From Streptomyces sp. Isolate_45 (lineage in GTDB: Bacteria > Actinomycetota > Actinomycetes > Streptomycetales > Streptomycetaceae), in contig NZ_JANFAK020000002.1 of the NCBI RefSeq assembly GCF_024721315.2, positions 62,001 to 126,000 on the forward strand: a stretch of DNA of 64,000 nt. Reading direction: 5' to 3'. Positions within the stretch are counted from its first letter, which is position 1. Each line of letters starts with the position of its first letter. The notes beneath the pieces are model-generated. The model saw nothing but the letters and a program-made list of their open reading frames with translations, was not told the DNA's origin and made no database searches. Position numbers and translations under genes: made by a program. Shown one piece after another: positions 30,816-37,462 of this stretch.

Positions 30816-31194
30816 GGATCTCTCGCGCCGCGAAAATCACGGCCGCATTGCGCGCCCATCCCTGACCCATGAGGCACGGGACGCATACGGAACTCCCTGG
30901 CCCGAGTGGATCAGATCCAACACCGACCAGCTGAACCAAGCCCAACGTCAAGGCGAGATCGGCTCCGATGTGAACACAGTCGACCAGGCCCACCAGATCT
31001 CCGGCACCCGGACAGGCCTTGTTCTGACGGGTCACTCCGTCTACGGAGACTTCGAAGGTCTTGAAGAGCGAATCGCGGCGAGGTGCAGGAATATCATGAC
31101 CGTCACCGCGCATCCGCGCATTCTCCTGAAAATCGACTTCTCGCCCACTGCGGGCCGGGATCTCTATCAGGCATTCCTCGATAGACAGTCCTGA
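30810..31194 (+). pseudogene. Remnant of a gamma-butyrolactone-receptor-like TetR regulator
   Basis: The plus frame ending at 31194 reads THEARDAYGTPWPEWIRSNT, then QLNQAQRQGEIGSDVN and a final ILLKIDFSPTAGRDLYQAF. This is the ligand-binding C-terminal half of ScbR/ArpA-type autoregulator receptors (family pattern A..QGE..P.V.P, GvQ, LTDREDLEeRV, L.rLD.sP.RG). Upstream of about 30862 the match continues in another frame (GHRISRAAKITAALRAHP). The entire TetR DNA-binding half is missing, because the STAS remnant takes its place. A receptor fragment beside a P450/crotonase pair suggests a former biosynthetic regulatory unit. Confidence 0.6.
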
Positions 31195-31227
31195 GGGTCG
31201 ACTGAAGCACGCGCCAGAACCCCGGCG

Positions 31228-31250
31228 TTTTGTGCGGTCTGTTCACAAAA
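31228..31250. promoter_or_regulatory. Inverted repeat upstream of the P450 gene
   Basis: TTTTGTG (31228-31234) and CACAAAA (31244-31250) are exact complements around a 9-nt spacer. The AT-rich arms stand out in this GC-rich DNA. It may be a regulator site of the P450 transcription unit (150 bp upstream of its start) or the terminator of the dead receptor gene. Confidence 0.45.
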
Positions 31251-31385
31251 GCGGCAATCCTTCAAGTCGGCGAGTCTCACGGTGGCGCATGTAGGTGTGG
31301 GGAAACTCTCCTCTGGCGTAGACGCTCAATGGTGAGGGTATGCAGGGCTGGCCATCCCTGTTTGATCTTGCGAGAAAGAGATTCC

Positions 31386-32633
31386 TTGAACACTTCCGTT
31401 GCTTCCGTCGGCGTCGACCGGCGGGCATTGGCGGCCATATTTTCCAAGCTGCGAACCGAGGCAGGGCAATCGGATCCATTGCCGGCCTACCGGCAGCTTG
31501 CCGCAATGGGTGAGGTTATCCCCGCGCCATGGGGCGGATACGTCGTCACGTCATACGCTCTCTGTGACCGGATTCTGCGGGACAAGGCCTGGCGCGTCCC
31601 CGACGCCGATTGGCGGAGAAAGAATTCGGCTCGATGGAATTCGCCTTCATCGCAACAGATGGCTGCGTCACTGCCGATGTTCAACCAACCCCAGCACACG
31701 ATGGCACGCCGATCCCTCGGCAGCCTGTTCCCGCACAGTTCACTCGCAGCTCTTCGTCCGTCCGCGGAGCGGGCCGTCGACAGGCTGCTCACCAACTTCA
31801 CCGATCAACTGCGCCACGGGCCGGCCGACTTCCACACACTCGTCAGCGAAGAACTGCCCATCGTCACCATAGGCGAGTGGATGGGAATACCCGTCACCGA
31901 CTACGCACTCCTGCGCGACCTCACGCATGATCAAGTCTTTGCGCAGGAACTCTTCCCCACACCCAGCCAGTTGGCTCTCTCCGATGCCGCCACGGCACAA
32001 CTGCGGACCTATTTCGATGAGTTGATTCGTGAGCGCAGAATGAGCCCTGGGAGTGACCCGGTTTCGGCGTGGCTACGGACGTGGGATGAGATCGAACCCG
32101 ACAGGCAGCGCGCAGACGAAGCCGTCCACGGCCTCGCCCTCTTCATGATCCTCGCGGCGCTGGAGACGACCTCGCACATCCTGTCCACGGCGGTGCGCCT
32201 GCTCCTCGAAAACCCCACGCATCTGGAATCACTGCGTCGCGACCCCGCGCTCATCCCGGATGCCGTCGACGAAGTACTGCGCTACGACGCCCCCATCCAC
32301 ATGATCACGCGTGTGGCCCCGATGGATACCCAGCTCGGAGAAACCCTCGTGCCGGCCGGCCAGATGGTGCAGCTCATGGTGGGAGCCGCCCATCATGACC
32401 CCGCCCGCTACCCCGAACCCCATCGCTTCAGGCCCCGTCGTGGAGCGGCCCACCTGGCCTTCGGAGCCGGAATCCACTACTGCGCGGGCAACGCCCTGGC
32501 CCGGCTGGAAGCGGTCACCCTGCTCACCTCGCTCCTCGGTCGCCCCATACGGCCGCGCCTGAGCGGGCTCCCAGGGTGGGCGCCGCGGGTCGCCTTCCGA
32601 CGGATCACGTCCCTGAGCCTTACCCTCGCCTGA
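31386..32633 (+). CDS. Cytochrome P450
   Basis: A 415-residue soluble bacterial P450 (class I, needs ferredoxin and reductase). Landmarks: I-helix AALETTS (257-263, in place of the usual AGxxT(T/S), with acidic Glu260), ExxR EVLR (296-299) and the haem loop FGAGIHYCAG (359-368) with ligand Cys366. The N-terminus has no membrane anchor. The most likely start is TTG 31386, which follows AGAAAGAGA at 5-6 nt and fits P450 length; the open frame back to 31230 gives a Cys/Arg-rich non-homologous leader. The crotonase gene follows at 31 bp, so both are probably one operon. Substrate unknown; a tailoring role in a small-molecule pathway is likely. Confidence 0.85.
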   Translation: MNTSVASVGVDRRALAAIFSKLRTEAGQSDPLPAYRQLAAMGEVIPAPWGGYVVTSYALCDRILRDKAWRVPDADWRRKNSARWNSPSSQQMAASLPMFNQPQHTMARRSLGSLFPHSSLAALRPSAERAVDRLLTNFTDQLRHGPADFHTLVSEELPIVTIGEWMGIPVTDYALLRDLTHDQVFAQELFPTPSQLALSDAATAQLRTYFDELIRERRMSPGSDPVSAWLRTWDEIEPDRQRADEAVHGLALFMILAALETTSHILSTAVRLLLENPTHLESLRRDPALIPDAVDEVLRYDAPIHMITRVAPMDTQLGETLVPAGQMVQLMVGAAHHDPARYPEPHRFRPRRGAAHLAFGAGIHYCAGNALARLEAVTLLTSLLGRPIRPRLSGLPGWAPRVAFRRITSLSLTLA

Positions 32634-32664
32634 CCATTCATTCGAGAAACGAGACGACGCTCGC

Positions 32665-33432
32665 ATGCTCAAGGACTTCAAGACCCTTCAGGTGACCGAC
32701 ACCAACAAGGGAGCCATCGTCGAGGTGCAGCTCAACCGGCCCGAGACGGGTAACAGCGTCGATGGGCAGATGCTCAGCGAACTGCTGCTGCTCCTGCGTC
32801 ACTTGGAGGACGACGCCACCGTCCGCGTGATGGTGTTGTCCGGCGCGGGAGATCATTTCTGCCAGGGTGGCGACCGTTCGGAGTTCCCCGAACTACTGGA
32901 GAGGGACCCGTCGGGCTCCGAGCTGACCGCCCTCGGCTACACGGCCCAGCGTGTGTGCTCGACACTCGCGCAAATGAAACTGGTGACCATCGCCCGTCTC
33001 CACGGTGACGTCATAGGCGCCGGCCTTGGACTCGCGATCTTCTGCGATCTGCGCATCGGAGCAGACACCGCCAGATTCCGGATGCCGGAGGTCGGCCTCG
33101 GAGTCCCGCCCGCATGGGGTGGCGTCCTGCCGCGTCTCCTGGAAGAGGCGGGACAGTCCAGGGTTCGCCGGTTCCTGCTCACGGCCGACGCGTTCGACGC
33201 CGACATGGCGGAGCGAATGTCCATCCTGGACAAGGTGGTGCCCGCAAGCGAGCTCGACGCTGCCGTCAATCACTGGGCCAAGAAGATCGCCCGTCGTGAC
33301 CAGACGGCCATGCGGATCACCAAAACCATGTTGAACGCGCGTGCAGGCGCGTCTCAGCTGGCGGTTGGTTCGTATTTCGACGAGGAGTTGCTGACGGCTT
33401 CGATCGCCAGGCGGGTGCTGCCCCGGGGGTGA
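32665..33432 (+). CDS. Enoyl-CoA hydratase/isomerase (crotonase) family protein
   Basis: A 255-residue crotonase-fold protein. The oxyanion-hole segments are DHFCQGGDRSEF (63-74) and HGDVIGAGLGLAIFCDLRIG (113-132). Glu142 in PEVGLG corresponds to the first catalytic glutamate of enoyl-CoA hydratase. The second one (in the GKSxAMEM-type helix) is replaced: the region reads QSRVRRF (164-170). With only one acidic residue it is unlikely to be a classical hydratase; an isomerase, dehydratase-like or decarboxylase role on an acyl-CoA or acyl-ACP is more plausible. It is 31 bp behind the P450 gene. A terminator hairpin follows at 33643. Confidence 0.8.
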   Translation: MLKDFKTLQVTDTNKGAIVEVQLNRPETGNSVDGQMLSELLLLLRHLEDDATVRVMVLSGAGDHFCQGGDRSEFPELLERDPSGSELTALGYTAQRVCSTLAQMKLVTIARLHGDVIGAGLGLAIFCDLRIGADTARFRMPEVGLGVPPAWGGVLPRLLEEAGQSRVRRFLLTADAFDADMAERMSILDKVVPASELDAAVNHWAKKIARRDQTAMRITKTMLNARAGASQLAVGSYFDEELLTASIARRVLPRG

Positions 33433-33642
33433 CCCCAGGTAGGTGCAACGTCGGTCCGCGACCAACCGACCCTCCGGCCCGGAGGCGAGTCTCGGCAAAG
33501 GAACCACGGTGGCCTTCCGTGCCCCCGAGCCAGCCGCATGCATCACCGGTGCCGTGTGCCCGTCAACGGCAGCGCCGGTACGGGCCGCTGGCCTTCGGGA
33601 CCGTCCGCCACCCTGGAGTCCGATGACCGCATGACCTGACAG

Positions 33643-33668
33643 CGGGCAGTCCCCAGTGGGGCTGCCCG
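33643..33668 (+). terminator. Hairpin downstream of the P450/crotonase operon
   Basis: CGGGCAG-T-CCCC (33643-33654) and GGGG-CTGCCCG (33658-33668) pair with a single bulged T and a 3-nt loop. It is about 210 nt after the crotonase stop and is the best terminator candidate for the operon. Confidence 0.6.
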
Positions 33669-33713
33669 GCGGCAACAAATCCCTGGTGTGTCCAGCGCCT
33701 CGGTTTGCTTGCC

Positions 33714-33802
33714 GGCAGCGCTGCCACCACCTGGCGAGTGTTCAGCTCGCCAGGTGAAGAACCCGGTCCGCAGACCGGGCAAAACCGCCCCTGCCAGGGC
33801 GG
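33714..33802. other. Tract of four consecutive perfect palindromes/hairpins
   Basis: In 89 bp there are four perfect inverted repeats in a row: the palindrome GGCAGCGCTGCC (33714-33725), CACCTGGCGAG/CTCGCCAGGTG with a 7-nt loop (33728-33756), CCCGGTC/GACCGGG with a 4-nt loop (33762-33779) and CCGCCC/GGGCGG with a 6-nt loop (33785-33802). Linkers are 2-6 nt. No gene overlaps. The layout is like a structured RNA, the subterminal hairpins of an IS200/IS605-type or similar element, or stacked terminators. An IS5 scrap lies 185 bp further on. The rest of 33433-33980 shows no gene. Confidence 0.7.
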
Positions 33803-33984
33803 ATCACATGCTTCCGAAGAACCCGACTCCAGTGCGCATGGGTACCAGGGGATCGACGCTACCGTGTCCCGACACATCCGCCCGGGGCGACTTCTCGCGC
33901 GCCGCCACCTGGGTCATCACCCAGCGCCTGTACCCCAAGACCGGCGACACCACGCTGGGCGTCGCAAGCGACCTCGCCGCGCGG

Positions 33985-34070
33985 CGACGGCCTTCGCCAC
34001 CGGATACGACAAGCTCGCCGTCCGCTACGAAGGGACCGTGCTGGTCGCAGTCCTAAACGAGTGGCTGTGA
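33985..34070 (+). pseudogene. C-terminal remnant of a second IS5-type transposase
   Basis: The plus frame ending at TGA 34068-34070 reads AFATGYDKLAVRYEGTVLVA and then VLNEWL. ATRYDKLAVRYEATV(L/I)VAA(I/L)NEWL is the common end of another branch of Streptomyces IS5 transposases. Only about 27 residues remain. Sequence after the stop does not resemble a clean inverted repeat. Confidence 0.65.
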
Positions 34071-34220
34071 CAGACATCCTCTTTCCGGAGACCCAAGCGC
34101 CGCCCCGCTCTCCTTCGATCGGCTCGTAGTCGTCGAGGTAGCAGGTCAGGGCGACCTTGTCGAGGCCATCCGCAGTCTCTGAACGACACCCCGCACCTTC
34201 AGCCACTTTCGCAACAGACC

Positions 34221-34475
34221 CTAATCGCCCGCGAAGCCTATGCGTAGGTCTCTGTCCGCACGGCAGCGTAGGCCCCAGGCCGGCAGTGTCGTGATGGCCT
34301 CGTGCTCGGCATTGCTCAACCGAGCGAGATCCGCACCTTTCAGCTCCCGCACCATCCGGCCCACTGCCTCACCGCGCAGGGCGGTGTCCCCGTAGGGATT
34401 GATGGTGGCCAGGGTTGGCAACCGGTGCCGGCCCAACTTTTCGATGGCCGTCCAGAACTCGTCATCGACGACCAT
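34221..34475 (-). CDS. Short hypothetical protein, probably truncated at its start
   Basis: An 84-residue frame from ATG 34473-34475 (MVVDDEFWTAIEKLGRHRLP ... AWGLRCRADRDLRIGFAGD). The composition is protein-like, with helices rich in Glu/Arg/Leu. The same frame stays open upstream to about 34590 and there reads LAPGLALLRAAIAVLLLKQA, a hydrophobic stretch, so the ATG may be internal and the true start lost. I know no function. It sits between an IS5 scrap and a decayed kinase gene, so it may itself be a remnant. Confidence 0.4.
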   Translation of the reverse strand: MVVDDEFWTAIEKLGRHRLPTLATINPYGDTALRGEAVGRMVRELKGADLARLSNAEHEAITTLPAWGLRCRADRDLRIGFAGD

Positions 34476-34819
34476 CCGCTCCAGCGCCCCGGCCGCTTGC
34501 TTCAGCAGCAGGACGGCGATCGCGGCCCTGAGCAGGGCGAGCCCGGGGGCCAGGACCGATACGTGATCAACATCCGGCCGACGTCAGGCGCGAAGAGGAG
34601 AACCTGGCGCAGGTCGGTGGCGATCAGGCCCGGCAGAACCGCGTAGGAGGCAACGGCCGGTAGCCGCAGGCCGCCACCGTGAGGATCCTCCGGCGAGGAT
34701 GCGGCGCCGCCCCCTGTGGCGCCTGCCCGGCGAGGCCGGAACAGGTGGAGTGTGGAGTAGGGACCAGATCGTGGCCGCCCCCAGCGCGGTCCTGCTATCG
34801 GCCGGAGCCCGCGGCCCGC

Positions 34820-35650
34820 CCCGTCGTGAAGGCCGGTCTGCGCACCTCGGGCCAGTTCATCGGTACCCCGGCCCCGGCCCCGGCACCGGCCCCGGGCCGG
34901 TGCCGGGGTAGCAGGACCCGCAGTGCTCCCGGTTCCACGTGGCAGCGCACCGGCGTGGGCATCGTCAGGGATTCGCCGTCCAGACCGATCCTGATGACCG
35001 GACCGTCCGAGTCCACGACAACCTCGCGGGCCCGGACCGAGGTCAGGCCACCGGACCGGCCATGACTGGCGCGAGCAGGTCCGGCAACAGCGCCAGGACC
35101 GTACGGATCTTGTCGTCGCGACGACGTCCTGGGGATGCTCCGGGTCGAGGAGCACCACGTCGGCACCCATGGCCTCAGCCTTCTCGCGAAGTGGAAGGAG
35201 CCGACCTTCACGCCGCCGGAGCGGGGATTCATGATGATGTACGGCCGTCGCGGCGGCACGGCACGCAGCTCGGGCATCCGGGACCGGCCCTCCTGGACGA
35301 GCGCGGCACGCCCGCACGCCGCGGCCAGGACCCAAAGGAGGACCGAGCAGATCACCACCCAGAGCAACGCCACCCGCGCGAACCACACGATCACGGCCAC
35401 GGGCGCCACCTACAGCAGCGCCACCATCCACCGGATGAGGCCTCGGTGCGCCAGGACGAGCCAGGCGGCGACAGGGGGTCAGGGACACTGCGGCGAGCCC
35501 TACGCCCACCAGGACGACGCTCCGGAGCCCGGCGAAGACCAGCAGGACGATGAGGGCCGCCGTGCCGGACAGCAGGGCCGGCCGTGCCTGGCTGGGCGTG
35601 CATGCTCACGGCGACCCCAACCGCAACCGCAACCGCAACCGCGTCGCCGC
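34820..35650 (-). pseudogene. Decayed membrane diacylglycerol-kinase-like gene
   Basis: Pieces in different minus-strand frames line up as one protein. A membrane part comes first (ALLSGTAALIVLLVFAGLRS, near 35520; then WLVLAHRGLIRWMVALL and APVAVIVWFARVALLWVV). The ATP-binding start of a DAGK catalytic domain follows (PYIIMNPRSGG with lysine and F next), then KAEAMGADVVLLDPEHPQDV, and finally VDSDGPVIRIGLDGESLTMP with PGALRVLLPRHRPG. The catalytic GGDGT core between 35110 and 35060 is deleted and at least three frameshifts are needed. The end has simple repeats (35622-35645, CAACCG units) and a 13-bp hairpin (34878-34908). It would have phosphorylated a lipid. Confidence 0.6.
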
Positions 35651-35676
35651 GCCGTGCAGGACCGCGGAGCCTCAGC

Positions 35677-36045
35677 TCACGGGCGTTTCCCGACGGACCG
35701 CCGGGGTTTGGCCGTCGCCGCTGTCTTCCTCGGCCGTGCGGGTCGCGGCTGCGCCCGTTCGCTCTCGTCCGAGGCTTCCGGTGAGGTCTCCCGCCCGGCG
35801 CGGGCAGACGTATGAAGTCGACCGGTCGTCCACTTCAGCTCGATCTCCAGCTCGATCTCGTCACCGTCCACCTCGATCTCGATCTCACTGCGGAGCTCGT
35901 CGGGTACGCGCAGGCTCAGGACGCCCGAACCAAGCGTGACCTCGGCGTTCCCACCCTCTCTCAGTGCCTCGGCGAGCGCCGAGAGCTGCTCGGCGGCCTC
36001 GCTTCGGGACAACGAGCGTTTCTGTTCGAACTTGAGGTCCGACAC
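35677..36045 (-). CDS. Amphi-Trp domain protein
   Basis: A 122-residue cytoplasmic protein. MSDLKFEQKRSLSRSEAAEQLSAL opens the domain, and the alternating strands ending in EIEIEVDGDEIELEIELKW (about 54-72) include the conserved closing Lys-Trp of amphi-Trp domains. The second half is a disordered Arg/Pro/Ala/Lys tail. The domain occurs stand-alone across halophiles and actinobacteria, with unknown role. Note that the coding strand carries repetitive GAGATCGAG-type codons. ATG 36043-36045. Confidence 0.75.
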   Translation of the reverse strand: MSDLKFEQKRSLSRSEAAEQLSALAEALREGGNAEVTLGSGVLSLRVPDELRSEIEIEVDGDEIELEIELKWTTGRLHTSARAGRETSPEASDESERAQPRPARPRKTAATAKPRRSVGKRP

Positions 36046-36834
36046 GTTTCCTCCAGGGCTTGGGACGCGTCTGACCGAACCGACCAGACACCTGCCATGT
36101 TCTGTTCCTGACGCTCATCCCGCACGACCGGCCGGTCCCACGGATGACGTTCCCCGGCGTGCACCATGCCGGCCGGCCCCAAACCGGCCCCGCCGGGACC
36201 GGACCGGATCGGGAGGACGGCTGGTTCGCGGAGCGGCTGAAACGTACCGGGGAAAGGCGCCACTGCCTGCCCGGGCGGCGTGCCGGGCGAGGGAGCCGGG
36301 ACGCCGCCCCGCCGCCATCCGTGCGCGGAAGCGGTGTGGAGGCGCGCTCGCCGGGGCGGAATGAGGGTCTCGCGCGGACGGGGGCGTGAGATTGGTCGGA
36401 TGCAATAAGCGAGCGGTCGCACGAACAGCGTCCACCTCACTCACGAGGAGGACTACTTCGGGCTGGTCGGCCGTACGAGATGGAGGAGGGGTTGGTGGTT
36501 GTCCACCGGGCCGTGGTGACGCGTGTCGCAGGAGCTGCGGGAGCCGGTGGGGGTGCTTCGGCTCGCGTACGGGCCGACTGACGGGAGCAGCGGGTACGGC
36601 GGTCATGCGGTGTACCTCGTCGAGGCGCTTGAGCGGCCGACTGGGCCGACACGATGTGGTCCGGTGCGTGACCACCCAGGCCGCAGGACGACAGTGGCCT
36701 GCCTGGCGGGGCCGGGCACTGGAGGGGCGGTCACCGCCCGCCGGTGGCAGGGACGTTCGGACAGGCGCCCCTTCGGCCCTGAGAAGGTAGCCCCGCACCC
36801 AACCGGCACGTCATGCACCTGCTGGCCATTACTG
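36046..36834. other. Gene-poor stretch, about 0.8 kb
   Basis: No supported gene. Two plus-strand bits around 36425-36500 (HLTHEEDYFGLVGR in a broken frame) and 36520-36640 (ELREPVGVLRLAYGPTDGSS and GYGGHAVYLVEAL) look protein-like and could be pieces of one dead gene, but I cannot name it. The right end leads into an IS701 remnant. Confidence 0.35.
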
Positions 36835-37165
36835 GTGGGTAGAGGCTCAAGCCGGCGCCGTGTCTTTGGGGCTCCGGCCAGTCGTTGCAGGGTGCAGCAG
36901 GCGTGCGCGACGGAGACGAGGGTGACGTGGTGGTGCCAGCCGTTCCAGGTGCGGCCCTCGAAGTGGGCGAGTCCCAGGGCCTGTTTCATCTCGCGGTAGT
37001 CGTGCTCGATGCGCCGGCGGAGCTTGGCCAGGCGGACCAGGGTGGTGAGCGGGGTGTTGGCGGGTAGGTCGGAGAGCCAGAACTGAACGGGTTCGGCCTG
37101 GTCGGCCGGCCACCCGGCCGGCAGCCAGCACTGCGGCAGCTCACGCGAAGTCCGAGTGGCTGGGG
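36835..37165 (-). pseudogene. C-terminal remnant of an IS701-family transposase
   Basis: One minus frame reads CWLPAGWPADQAEPVQFWLS, DLPANTPLTTLVRLAKLRRR, IEHDYREMKQALGLAHFEGR and TWNGWHHHVTLVSVAHACCT. RIEHDYRE(L/M)K..LGLDHFEGR.W.GWHHHVTLV is the diagnostic end of IS701-type DDE transposases in Streptomyces, including the last catalytic glutamate (EHDYRE). The N-terminal two thirds are missing. Its upstream edge meets the stop codon of the secreted-protein gene at 37166, so an insertion or deletion boundary lies exactly there. Confidence 0.7.
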
Positions 37166-37462
37166 TCAGCCCTTGATCGTGGGCACGTTGGGTACGCAGA
37201 ACAGGCCTTGCAGGTACCGGAAGACGATGTGCTGGCCATCGGGACACCAGCCCTGGTTCGGGTCCTTGTCGAACGGGATGCCGTCGTAGACGCCGCGCGT
37301 GCAGAACGCCTTGGCGTCACTGTTGTAGCCGCCGAAGAAGCCGCCGTTCTTGAAGCACTGGTCGGCGGTGACGGTGGTCGGGGTGGCGGCGGAAGCGGTC
37401 GCCATGGGTGCGATGGCGAGGGCAGCCCCGAGGGCCATGGTGGCTGAAATGCGGTGTCGCAT
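37166..37462 (-). CDS. Small secreted cysteine-containing protein
   Basis: A 98-residue exported protein. MRHRISATMALGAALAIAPM followed by ATASAA is a signal peptide with cleavage near residue 26. The mature roughly 70 residues have four cysteines (DQCFKNG, AFCTRG, GWCPDG, LFCVPN), probably two disulfides, and a GGFFGGYN turn. No family is recognised. The ATG at 37460-37462 is preceded by AAGGA at 8 nt; ATG 37475-37477 is an alternative. The C-terminus (VPNVPTIKG) overlaps the junction with the IS701 remnant, so the tail could be altered. Confidence 0.6.
   Translation of the reverse strand: MRHRISATMALGAALAIAPMATASAATPTTVTADQCFKNGGFFGGYNSDAKAFCTRGVYDGIPFDKDPNQGWCPDGQHIVFRYLQGLFCVPNVPTIKG

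What the first reader, a model, noticed from the sequence alone, without database searches (positions are those of the whole stretch)
33643..33802. Five inverted repeats in 160 bp behind the P450/crotonase operon
One terminator-like hairpin and four further perfect palindromes or hairpins follow each other with 2-6 nt linkers from 33714. A single terminator does not need this. It may be a structured RNA or the end of a lost IS element.
Basis: seen in the sequence. Interest (0 to 1): 0.6.

Follow-up and report, generated by a model that had tools for sequence, protein, structure and literature searches.

The report
Relic of plasmid initiator hairpin array
The cluster of hairpins is a decayed piece of the control region that sits in front of a probable replication-starter gene on large Streptomyces plasmids, where several neighbouring hairpins show the same short loop sequence.

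Summary
The inverted repeats at 33643-33802 are real and form the most unusual fold found in the window (rank 1 of 799 stretches, z -5.4). They do not belong to the P450/crotonase operon. The stretch is a degraded copy of a conserved noncoding segment of giant linear Streptomyces plasmids (13 plasmid records, e.g. pFRL4, pFRL5, pSCL3; 71-85% identity), usually between a fabG-like gene and a winged-helix gene. The window keeps a frameshifted fabG tail, the hairpins and a 147-nt scrap of the winged-helix gene; the ribosome-site hairpin and start codon are deleted, and searches found no intact copy in this genome. Distant relatives of the winged-helix gene (pZL12, pCQ3, pCQ4) lie near DciA helicase-loader and ParA or ParB genes, so it is probably a replication initiator. 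Several of them also have tandem upstream hairpins that share one loop within a plasmid (TTAGCAG x3, TTGGCG x2-4, CGCCAA x2-3; here TGTCCAG x2) on different stems. I favour a structured leader RNA, perhaps with an antisense partner, that controls initiator expression; a DNA origin recognised through hairpins is nearly as likely, though GC skew gave no support for it. The window copy itself is dead.

The parts
33506..33591 (+). decayed 3' tail of a fabG-like (3-oxoacyl-ACP reductase) gene: one-base frameshift, stop codon lost (TGA to TGG)
   Evidence: homologous to the end of the fabG-like gene in L049 and others
33615..33639 (+). GGAG-N4-ATG-N5-ATGA stretch, a possible micro-ORF of 2-3 codons; GGAG and first ATG invariant in the 16 relatives, ATGA uninterrupted in 15
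   Evidence: function inferred only
33643..33668 (.). hairpin H1
   Evidence: homologous stem in A2
   Evidence: loop invariant in 16 of 16 relatives
33714..33725 (.). perfect palindrome GGCAGCGCTGCC, specific to this copy
   Evidence: absent from the relatives aligned
33728..33756 (.). hairpin H3, 11 perfect pairs, loop TGTTCAG at 33739-33745 (TGTCCAG in 15 of 16 relatives)
33762..33779 (.). hairpin H4
33785..33802 (.). hairpin H5
33810..33823 (.). remnant of hairpin H6 (GGTTC-N-GAACC in relatives; damaged here)
33831..33837 (.). deletion junction: 155 nt present in plasmid relative L049 (ribosome-site hairpin H8, start codon and first ~36 codons of the winged-helix gene) are missing
   Evidence: L049 8325 then 8481
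33837..33983 (+). scrap of the winged-helix (probable replication initiator) gene, about residues 37-85 of P0001
33989..34070 (+). probable transposase C-terminal scrap (..YDKLAVRYEGTVLVAVLNEWL*); the IS5-type label is recalled, no Pfam hit
   Evidence: similar copies of this stretch in many relatives

Best explanation
The hairpins are a dead copy of the noncoding control segment that precedes a winged-helix gene on giant linear Streptomyces plasmids. Shown: homology, gene order, loss of the gene start, conserved stems, the same loop in two hairpins of each near relative and in two to four hairpins of several distant ones, and a DciA/Par neighbourhood of the gene in distant relatives. Inferred: the winged-helix protein is the plasmid's replication initiator, and in live copies the tandem hairpins act as a structured 5' leader RNA. 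Their shared loop is the docking point for one partner, most likely a counter-transcribed antisense RNA or the protein itself, and docking decides whether the ribosome-site hairpin (H8) opens and how much initiator is made. In the window H8, the start codon and most of the gene are gone, so nothing works any more.
For: Homology: 13 of the 20 plasmid records listed (106 matched, 86 lower-ranked not listed) cover the hairpin stretch (H1-H13); 3 of 391 other genus genomes match it at E below 1e-10; 6 loci found in genome contigs through the protein all carry it (one is the same genome as G410). Of 12 annotated plasmid loci read, 11 have the fabG-like gene upstream (not pSCL3). Decay in the window; no other copy found in the genome. 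Pairing: 92.5% of 904 cells, 8 of 57 pairs with two-sided change against 2.0 in shuffles, 0/500. Ribosome-site hairpin GCATGCCC-GAAAGGA-GGGCGTGC before ATGATG, 94.5% of its cells paired in 16 relatives (in L055 an extra G shifts the columns). Loops: TGTCCAG in H2 of 16/16 and H3 of 15/16; far family TTGGCG x3 in four loci, TTAGCAG x3 in one, CGCCAA x2 in pZL12, TTGGCG x4 in pCQ4. 11 of 27 far loci have two or more hairpins with a common 6-mer loop against 2.3 expected from 40 shuffles each and 3 of 27 gene stretches; five of them have three, which shuffles of those loci reach 0-1 times in 200. H6 occurs in 8 of 27 far loci. Initiator role: DciA above the Pfam cut-off next to the gene in pCQ3 and pCQ4 and one gene away in pZL12, with ParA and/or ParB after it; winged helix whose longest alignments among 50 PDB rows shown are 4pql, 4pt7 and 5kbj, 99-103 residues, Z 7.5-8.2; lambda-O- and DnaD-named phage proteins among the BFVD rows, at low TM-scores. 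RNA level: in stems H1-H7, 19 A.C against 5 G.T column states (binomial 0.0066), as if G.U wobbles were tolerated on the minus strand; paired columns G>A 17/40 against C>T 7/42, unpaired 10/25 against 21/48.
Against: No transcript data. The strand evidence conflicts: composition-corrected folding favours the plus strand (mean z -3.2 against -2.2). The wobble count is not corrected for shared ancestry, and part of it comes from the most divergent rows, where the alignment is least sure. RNAalifold's covariation term is slightly unfavourable (+1.28); sliding the partners by +1 gives a covariation score of 0.058 and 19 further pair types, above the observed 0.051 and 16. Of the 11 far loci with shared loops, L075, L119 and L120 look like chance and L134/L136 show the same hairpins; L125, L129, L138 and L143 share their first two stems, so the cases are not independent. 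Fold matches to initiators tie in Z with CRP-type regulators, and the shorter model found only generic winged-helix rows in PDB. On the giant plasmid W01 a parA/HTH gene region at 68-75 kb is an alternative replication locus, and no gene named DciA or DUF721 is annotated within 7-8 kb of the winged-helix gene.
Confidence: 0.45

Rival explanations
1. The segment is a DNA element, the origin of replication or its iteron array: the winged-helix initiator recognises the common loop sequence as double-stranded repeats or as single-stranded loops in extruded hairpins, and replication starts there.
For: Position beside a probable initiator gene with DciA and Par genes. Printed precedent: the pWTY27 locus is repAB plus a 300-bp noncoding sequence, and RepA binds a long inverted repeat in it, possibly as a stem-loop (PMC3583192, passages seen). 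The loop can be TTGGCG in one plasmid and its complement CGCCAA in another, natural for a double-stranded site. Exact 37-nt spacing of the four pCQ4 loops.
Against: Cumulative GC skew has no switch at the locus in the two whole plasmids read (W01, W05), though skew on these plasmids may follow gene direction. Loop spacing differs between plasmids (about 28 to 75 nt). The A.C/G.T asymmetry would not be expected of a symmetric cruciform.
Confidence: 0.37
2. The segment is a regulatory leader (attenuator or protein-binding hairpins) of a plasmid transcription factor that has nothing to do with replication, for example a transfer or maintenance regulator.
For: The fold is a generic winged helix; W01 carries another candidate replication region; in one relative H5 is followed by five T (L031), like a terminator.
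Against: DciA/Par neighbourhood in distant members; about one copy per plasmid record, 160 places in 152 records.
Confidence: 0.13
3. End of a lost IS element, or a simple terminator cluster behind the P450/crotonase operon.
For: A transposase-like scrap lies at 33989-34070.
Against: The hairpins match plasmid backbone with fabG-like sequence on the left; among 99 other relatives the transposase scrap is common while no listed match in the hairpin stretch is below E 0.001.
Confidence: 0.02
4. Chance cluster of palindromes in GC-rich DNA.
For: One of the five (33714-33725) is not conserved.
Against: Rank 1 of 799 stretches; homologous stretch in 20 distinct loci.
Confidence: 0.01

Closest known systems
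rep plus noncoding sequence loci of Streptomyces plasmids (pWTY27 repAB/ncs, SCP2 repI/repII, pFP11), from PMC3583192 passages
   Same: noncoding segment of about 300 nt with inverted repeats beside a replication gene
   Different: here two to four neighbouring hairpins share one loop on different stems; no binding or replication test
antisense-controlled rep leaders: pT181 repC, pSK41 RepA_N, pIP501 repR (PMC5703833 passages)
   Same: structured leader before a rep gene and a hairpin that covers the ribosome site; winged-helix initiator as in RepA_N
   Different: no antisense RNA shown; more hairpins, with one common loop; GC-rich actinobacterial host; no RepA_N Pfam hit
CsrB/RsmZ-type RNAs (recalled)
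   Same: array of hairpins that present the same short motif in their loops
   Different: cis position before one plasmid gene, 6-7 nt motif that changes between plasmids
IncFII/IncB/IncI-alpha rep leader loop UUGGCG with U-turn (recalled)
   Same: the same six loop letters occur in pCQ4-type leaders
   Different: several hairpins instead of one; unrelated host and Rep; the likeness may be chance

Membership tests
Streptomyces rep/ncs replication locus | gene for a replication initiator | tested here: inconclusive
   winged helix, DciA/Par neighbours in distant members; no replication test
Streptomyces rep/ncs replication locus | adjacent noncoding segment with inverted repeats | tested here: met
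Streptomyces rep/ncs replication locus | autonomous replication of the cloned locus, binding by Rep | not testable with these tools
   bench work
Streptomyces rep/ncs replication locus | GC-skew switch at the locus (supportive sign, not strictly defining) | tested here: not met
   W01 and W05
antisense-controlled rep leader | counter-transcribed RNA over the leader | not testable with these tools
   no RNA data; wobble asymmetry is only indirect
antisense-controlled rep leader | hairpin covering the rep ribosome site | tested here: met
   H8 in the 16 relatives of A2, 94.5% of cells paired; deleted in the window
known Rfam family | score above a curated threshold | tested here: not met
   window 31000-36000, E up to 5: one match, elsewhere and below its gathering score; six relatives' loci at gathering scores: 0 matches
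IS element end | terminal inverted repeats next to a transposase in the relatives that carry the hairpins | tested here: not met
   the annotated relatives have a fabG-like gene on one side and the winged-helix gene on the other

The most novel reading that the evidence does not exclude
A widespread, unnamed class of cis-acting hairpin arrays on Streptomyces plasmids and plasmid-phages, in which two to four hairpins of unrelated stems present one identical loop to a single partner, and the loop type (TGTCCAG, TTAGCAG, TTGGCG or CGCCAA) is the recognition code that couples initiator expression or firing to its own plasmid, and so sets compatibility.
Probability: 0.35. Interest if true: 0.75.

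Novelty: new variant of a known kind. Interest (0 to 1): 0.5.

Why it matters
How giant linear Streptomyces plasmids start and count their replication is, as far as the papers seen here tell, known in little detail. A shared-loop hairpin array in front of a probable initiator gene gives a defined target for testing copy control and compatibility on these antibiotic-gene carriers. The window itself shows that such a plasmid once recombined with this genome and left a scar.

Tried and rejected
(1) Terminator or IS-end reading: dropped. (2) Rfam: nothing. (3) GC skew as proof of an origin: negative in both plasmids read whole. (4) Two-codon 'minigene' [AG]TG-ACG-TAR upstream of 8 of 27 far loci: dropped, because read in frame by eye from the sequences the motif is the end of an upstream peptide (..QTSPSKGDQVT*). 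In the near family GGAG..ATG..ATGA stays only a possible micro-ORF; by eye its codons vary at non-synonymous positions. (5) TGTCCAG hairpins in 31 far loci: none; other loops were found only later. (6) Strict shared-loop criterion in near relatives: the TGTCCAG pair is found in 4 of 9 tested, because a mismatch next to the H3 loop, often A.C, breaks the stem rule in others. (7) Covariance model R1 on 19 far sources with filters off: L131 33 bits (E 1.5e-6), L082 15.5 bits (E 0.024), the rest E 0.13 or worse. (8) Structure searches: no PDB match at E 0.001 or below; sequence-profile search of PDB: best E 0.42. (9) The pZL12 replication paper is not held, so whether its mapped replication locus is this one could not be checked; PMC4797284 was opened for structure names and gave no passage. 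Rows dropped: A2 used 16 loci; left out were L062 (leader interrupted), L065, L066 and L067 (same stretch as L030 or L051), L061 (same genome as L031) and L033 (seen, not homologous). A5 used 14 of those 16. Of 32 far loci 27 could be oriented by the motif rule. Orientation failed for nearly all loci and the rule was replaced; it also failed for L168-L170 and L172, which were then read from hand-set positions, without shuffles.

Full report
The observation. A 186-nt stretch folds with z -5.24 (plus) and -4.71 (minus), 0 of 200 shuffles as stable, and among 799 stretches of 160 nt across the window the one at 33643 has the lowest z, -5.42 (that start was chosen, the grid neighbours rank 11 and 31).

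What it is. DNA searches found the stretch on giant linear Streptomyces plasmids: 106 plasmid records match some of 33430-34100; of the 20 listed, 13 (H1-H13) cover the hairpins, at 71-85% identity, and 7 match only the scraps downstream; 86 lower-ranked records were not listed. No phage record matched at DNA level. Of 392 genus genomes, 47 have some match at E 0.01; besides the own genome three are below 1e-10 (G197, G410, G341). A scan of genome contigs with the downstream protein gave six loci, all with the hairpins, one of them in the same genome as G410. In 11 of 12 annotated plasmid loci read, a fabG-like gene stands upstream, then a gap of about 280-360 nt with the hairpins, then a protein of about 390-415 aa called hypothetical or HTH; in one of these, L067, the downstream gene is annotated only in part. 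In pSCL3 the upstream genes differ.

The window copy is dead. 33506-33591 is the end of fabG with a frameshift and no stop; 33837-33983 encodes about residues 37-85 of the winged-helix protein; 155 nt between them, with the ribosome-site hairpin and start codon, are missing; a probable transposase tail follows at 33989-34070. A 16.6-kb plasmid segment used as probe found no other copy of the locus in the genome; the other matches are fabG paralogues and short pieces. The P450/crotonase pair upstream is unrelated: 18 of 99 other relatives have matches to it.

Conserved structure. On alignment A2 (16 loci, 345 columns) I named nine stems. Of 904 cells 92.5% pair; 8 of 57 pairs have a two-sided change (2.0 in shuffles, 0/500), but the +1 slid control reaches a higher covariation score, 0.058 against 0.051, and more pair types, 19 against 16. 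RNAalifold reports 12 of 79 pairs with two-sided change and a covariation term of +1.28. So pairing is conserved, but covariation alone is moderate evidence. Which strand carries the structure is unsettled: wobble-type changes lean to the minus strand (19 against 5 column states; paired G>A 17/40 against C>T 7/42, p 0.015; unpaired 10/25 against 21/48, p 0.81), composition-corrected folding leans to the plus strand. The loci are related and these counts are not corrected for that.

The loops. H2 and H3 have the same heptaloop, TGTCCAG, in 16/16 and 15/16 relatives. A covariance model found a divergent copy before a distant homologue (L131, 33 bits, E 1.5e-6 over 19 sources, filters off) and a weak one (L082, 15.5 bits) in which three hairpins share TTAGCAG. 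A blind search for hairpins with a common 6-mer loop upstream of 27 orientable far homologues found 11, against 2.3 expected from shuffles and 3 of 27 in the gene stretches. Three of the 11 (L075, L119, L120) look like chance, and L134 and L136 show the same hairpins. Five of the 27 have three such hairpins, which shuffles of those loci reach 0-1 times in 200. TTGGCG is shared by three hairpins in L125, L129, L138 and L143, whose first two stems are nearly alike but whose third stem is CCGGT/ACCGG in two and CGAAG/CTTCG in the other two. pCQ4 has four TTGGCG hairpins 37 nt apart, pCQ3 two; pSAM1, L171 and pZL12 have two and L172 three with the complement CGCCAA (no shuffles). Some of these loci are close relatives, so the counts are not independent. 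A GGTTC-N-GAACC hairpin (H6) recurs at a similar place in 8 of 27 far loci and 14 of 16 near ones. Two far loci with H6 (L123, L131) show no convincing shared loop. The far branch with several chromosomal members (L117-L122, L124, L126-L128) has neither H6 nor convincing shared loops.

The protein. P0001 (414 aa) has 160 places in 152 plasmid records; 19 of the 60 listed are annotated 'cell wall protein'. It carries weak HTH Pfam hits below cut-off, PF13730 among them (pCQ3 and pSAM1 proteins likewise). AlphaFold gives a winged helix and a helical C-terminal part at high local confidence, with pTM 0.42 and 0.50. Matches to solved structures are generic; the longest aligned of the 50 shown are 4pql, 4pt7 and 5kbj, titled N-terminal domain of DNA binding protein, structure of initiator and structure of Rep-DNA complex, 99-103 residues, Z 7.5-8.2, tied in Z with CRP-type proteins aligned over 62-69. 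BFVD rows include proteins named replication protein O and DnaD, at low TM-scores. pZL12.20c is 48.9% identical over 135 residues; the pCQ3 and pSAM1 proteins are more distant (32-33% over 105-161 residues, E 3e-13 and 9e-14 for single comparisons). A DciA-family protein (PF05258 above cut-off) follows directly in pCQ3 and pCQ4 and one gene later in pZL12; after it come ParA (pCQ3), ParB (pCQ4) or both (pZL12). pSAM1 has a gene annotated DUF721 one gene later, L171 one directly after. DciA is described as loader of the replicative helicase (search listing and abstract beginnings only: PMC12547741, PMC9825169). This makes an initiator role likely. On the giant plasmid W01 no such gene is annotated near the locus, and another parA/HTH region exists at 68-75 kb. 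About 150 of 267 kb of W01 were not read for genes.

Mechanism. I commit, at 0.45, to an RNA-level reading: tandem hairpins in the leader present one loop to one partner (antisense RNA or the protein) and thereby govern the ribosome-site hairpin. The DNA-origin reading is close behind: it fits the pWTY27 precedent (PMC3583192, passages) and the complement loops, and lacks support from GC skew. Antisense-controlled rep leaders with a hairpin at the ribosome site are described for pT181 and pSK41 in PMC5703833 (passages).

Literature. Searches in the open library: none of the papers listed (top rows only) has a title or abstract beginning about this array, and the passages read in PMC3583192, PMC13152386, PMC4487206, PMC5431353, PMC7157519 and PMC5703833 do not mention it. 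Subscription papers, the pZL12 paper among them, are not held. 'Not described' therefore holds only for that library and those terms.

Noticed in passing
W04 (pSCL3, NZ_CP086232.1) 359763-360376: a second, partial copy of the winged-helix gene, one piece with stop codons, lies about 25 kb from the full-length one
   Followed up: no
NZ_CP027859.1 (S. clavuligerus, 1.8 Mb plasmid) 235408-235929: a fragment of the same gene family without a listed gene, a possible relic like the one in the window
   Followed up: no
plasmid records, e.g. H36, H37, H40: the probable initiator family is annotated 'cell wall protein' in 19 of 60 listed rows
   Followed up: partly
L129, L143, L155 upstream of the winged-helix gene: a conserved peptide end QTSPSKGDQVT* / QTPPTEGDQVT* directly before the hairpins; in pZL12 it is not annotated
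   Followed up: partly
L031, H5: in S. filamentosus hairpin H5 is followed by five T like an intrinsic terminator, unlike the other relatives aligned
   Followed up: no
window 33756-33765 and 33816-33825: 10-nt direct repeat GAAGAACCCG, 60 nt apart, on either side of H4 and H5
   Followed up: no
window 36603-37247 (-): partial DDE transposase-like protein (PF01609, just below cut-off)
   Followed up: no
L117-L122, L124, L126-L128: homologues of the probable initiator, several at chromosomal positions, without H6; may be integrated elements or a chromosomal regulator branch
   Followed up: no
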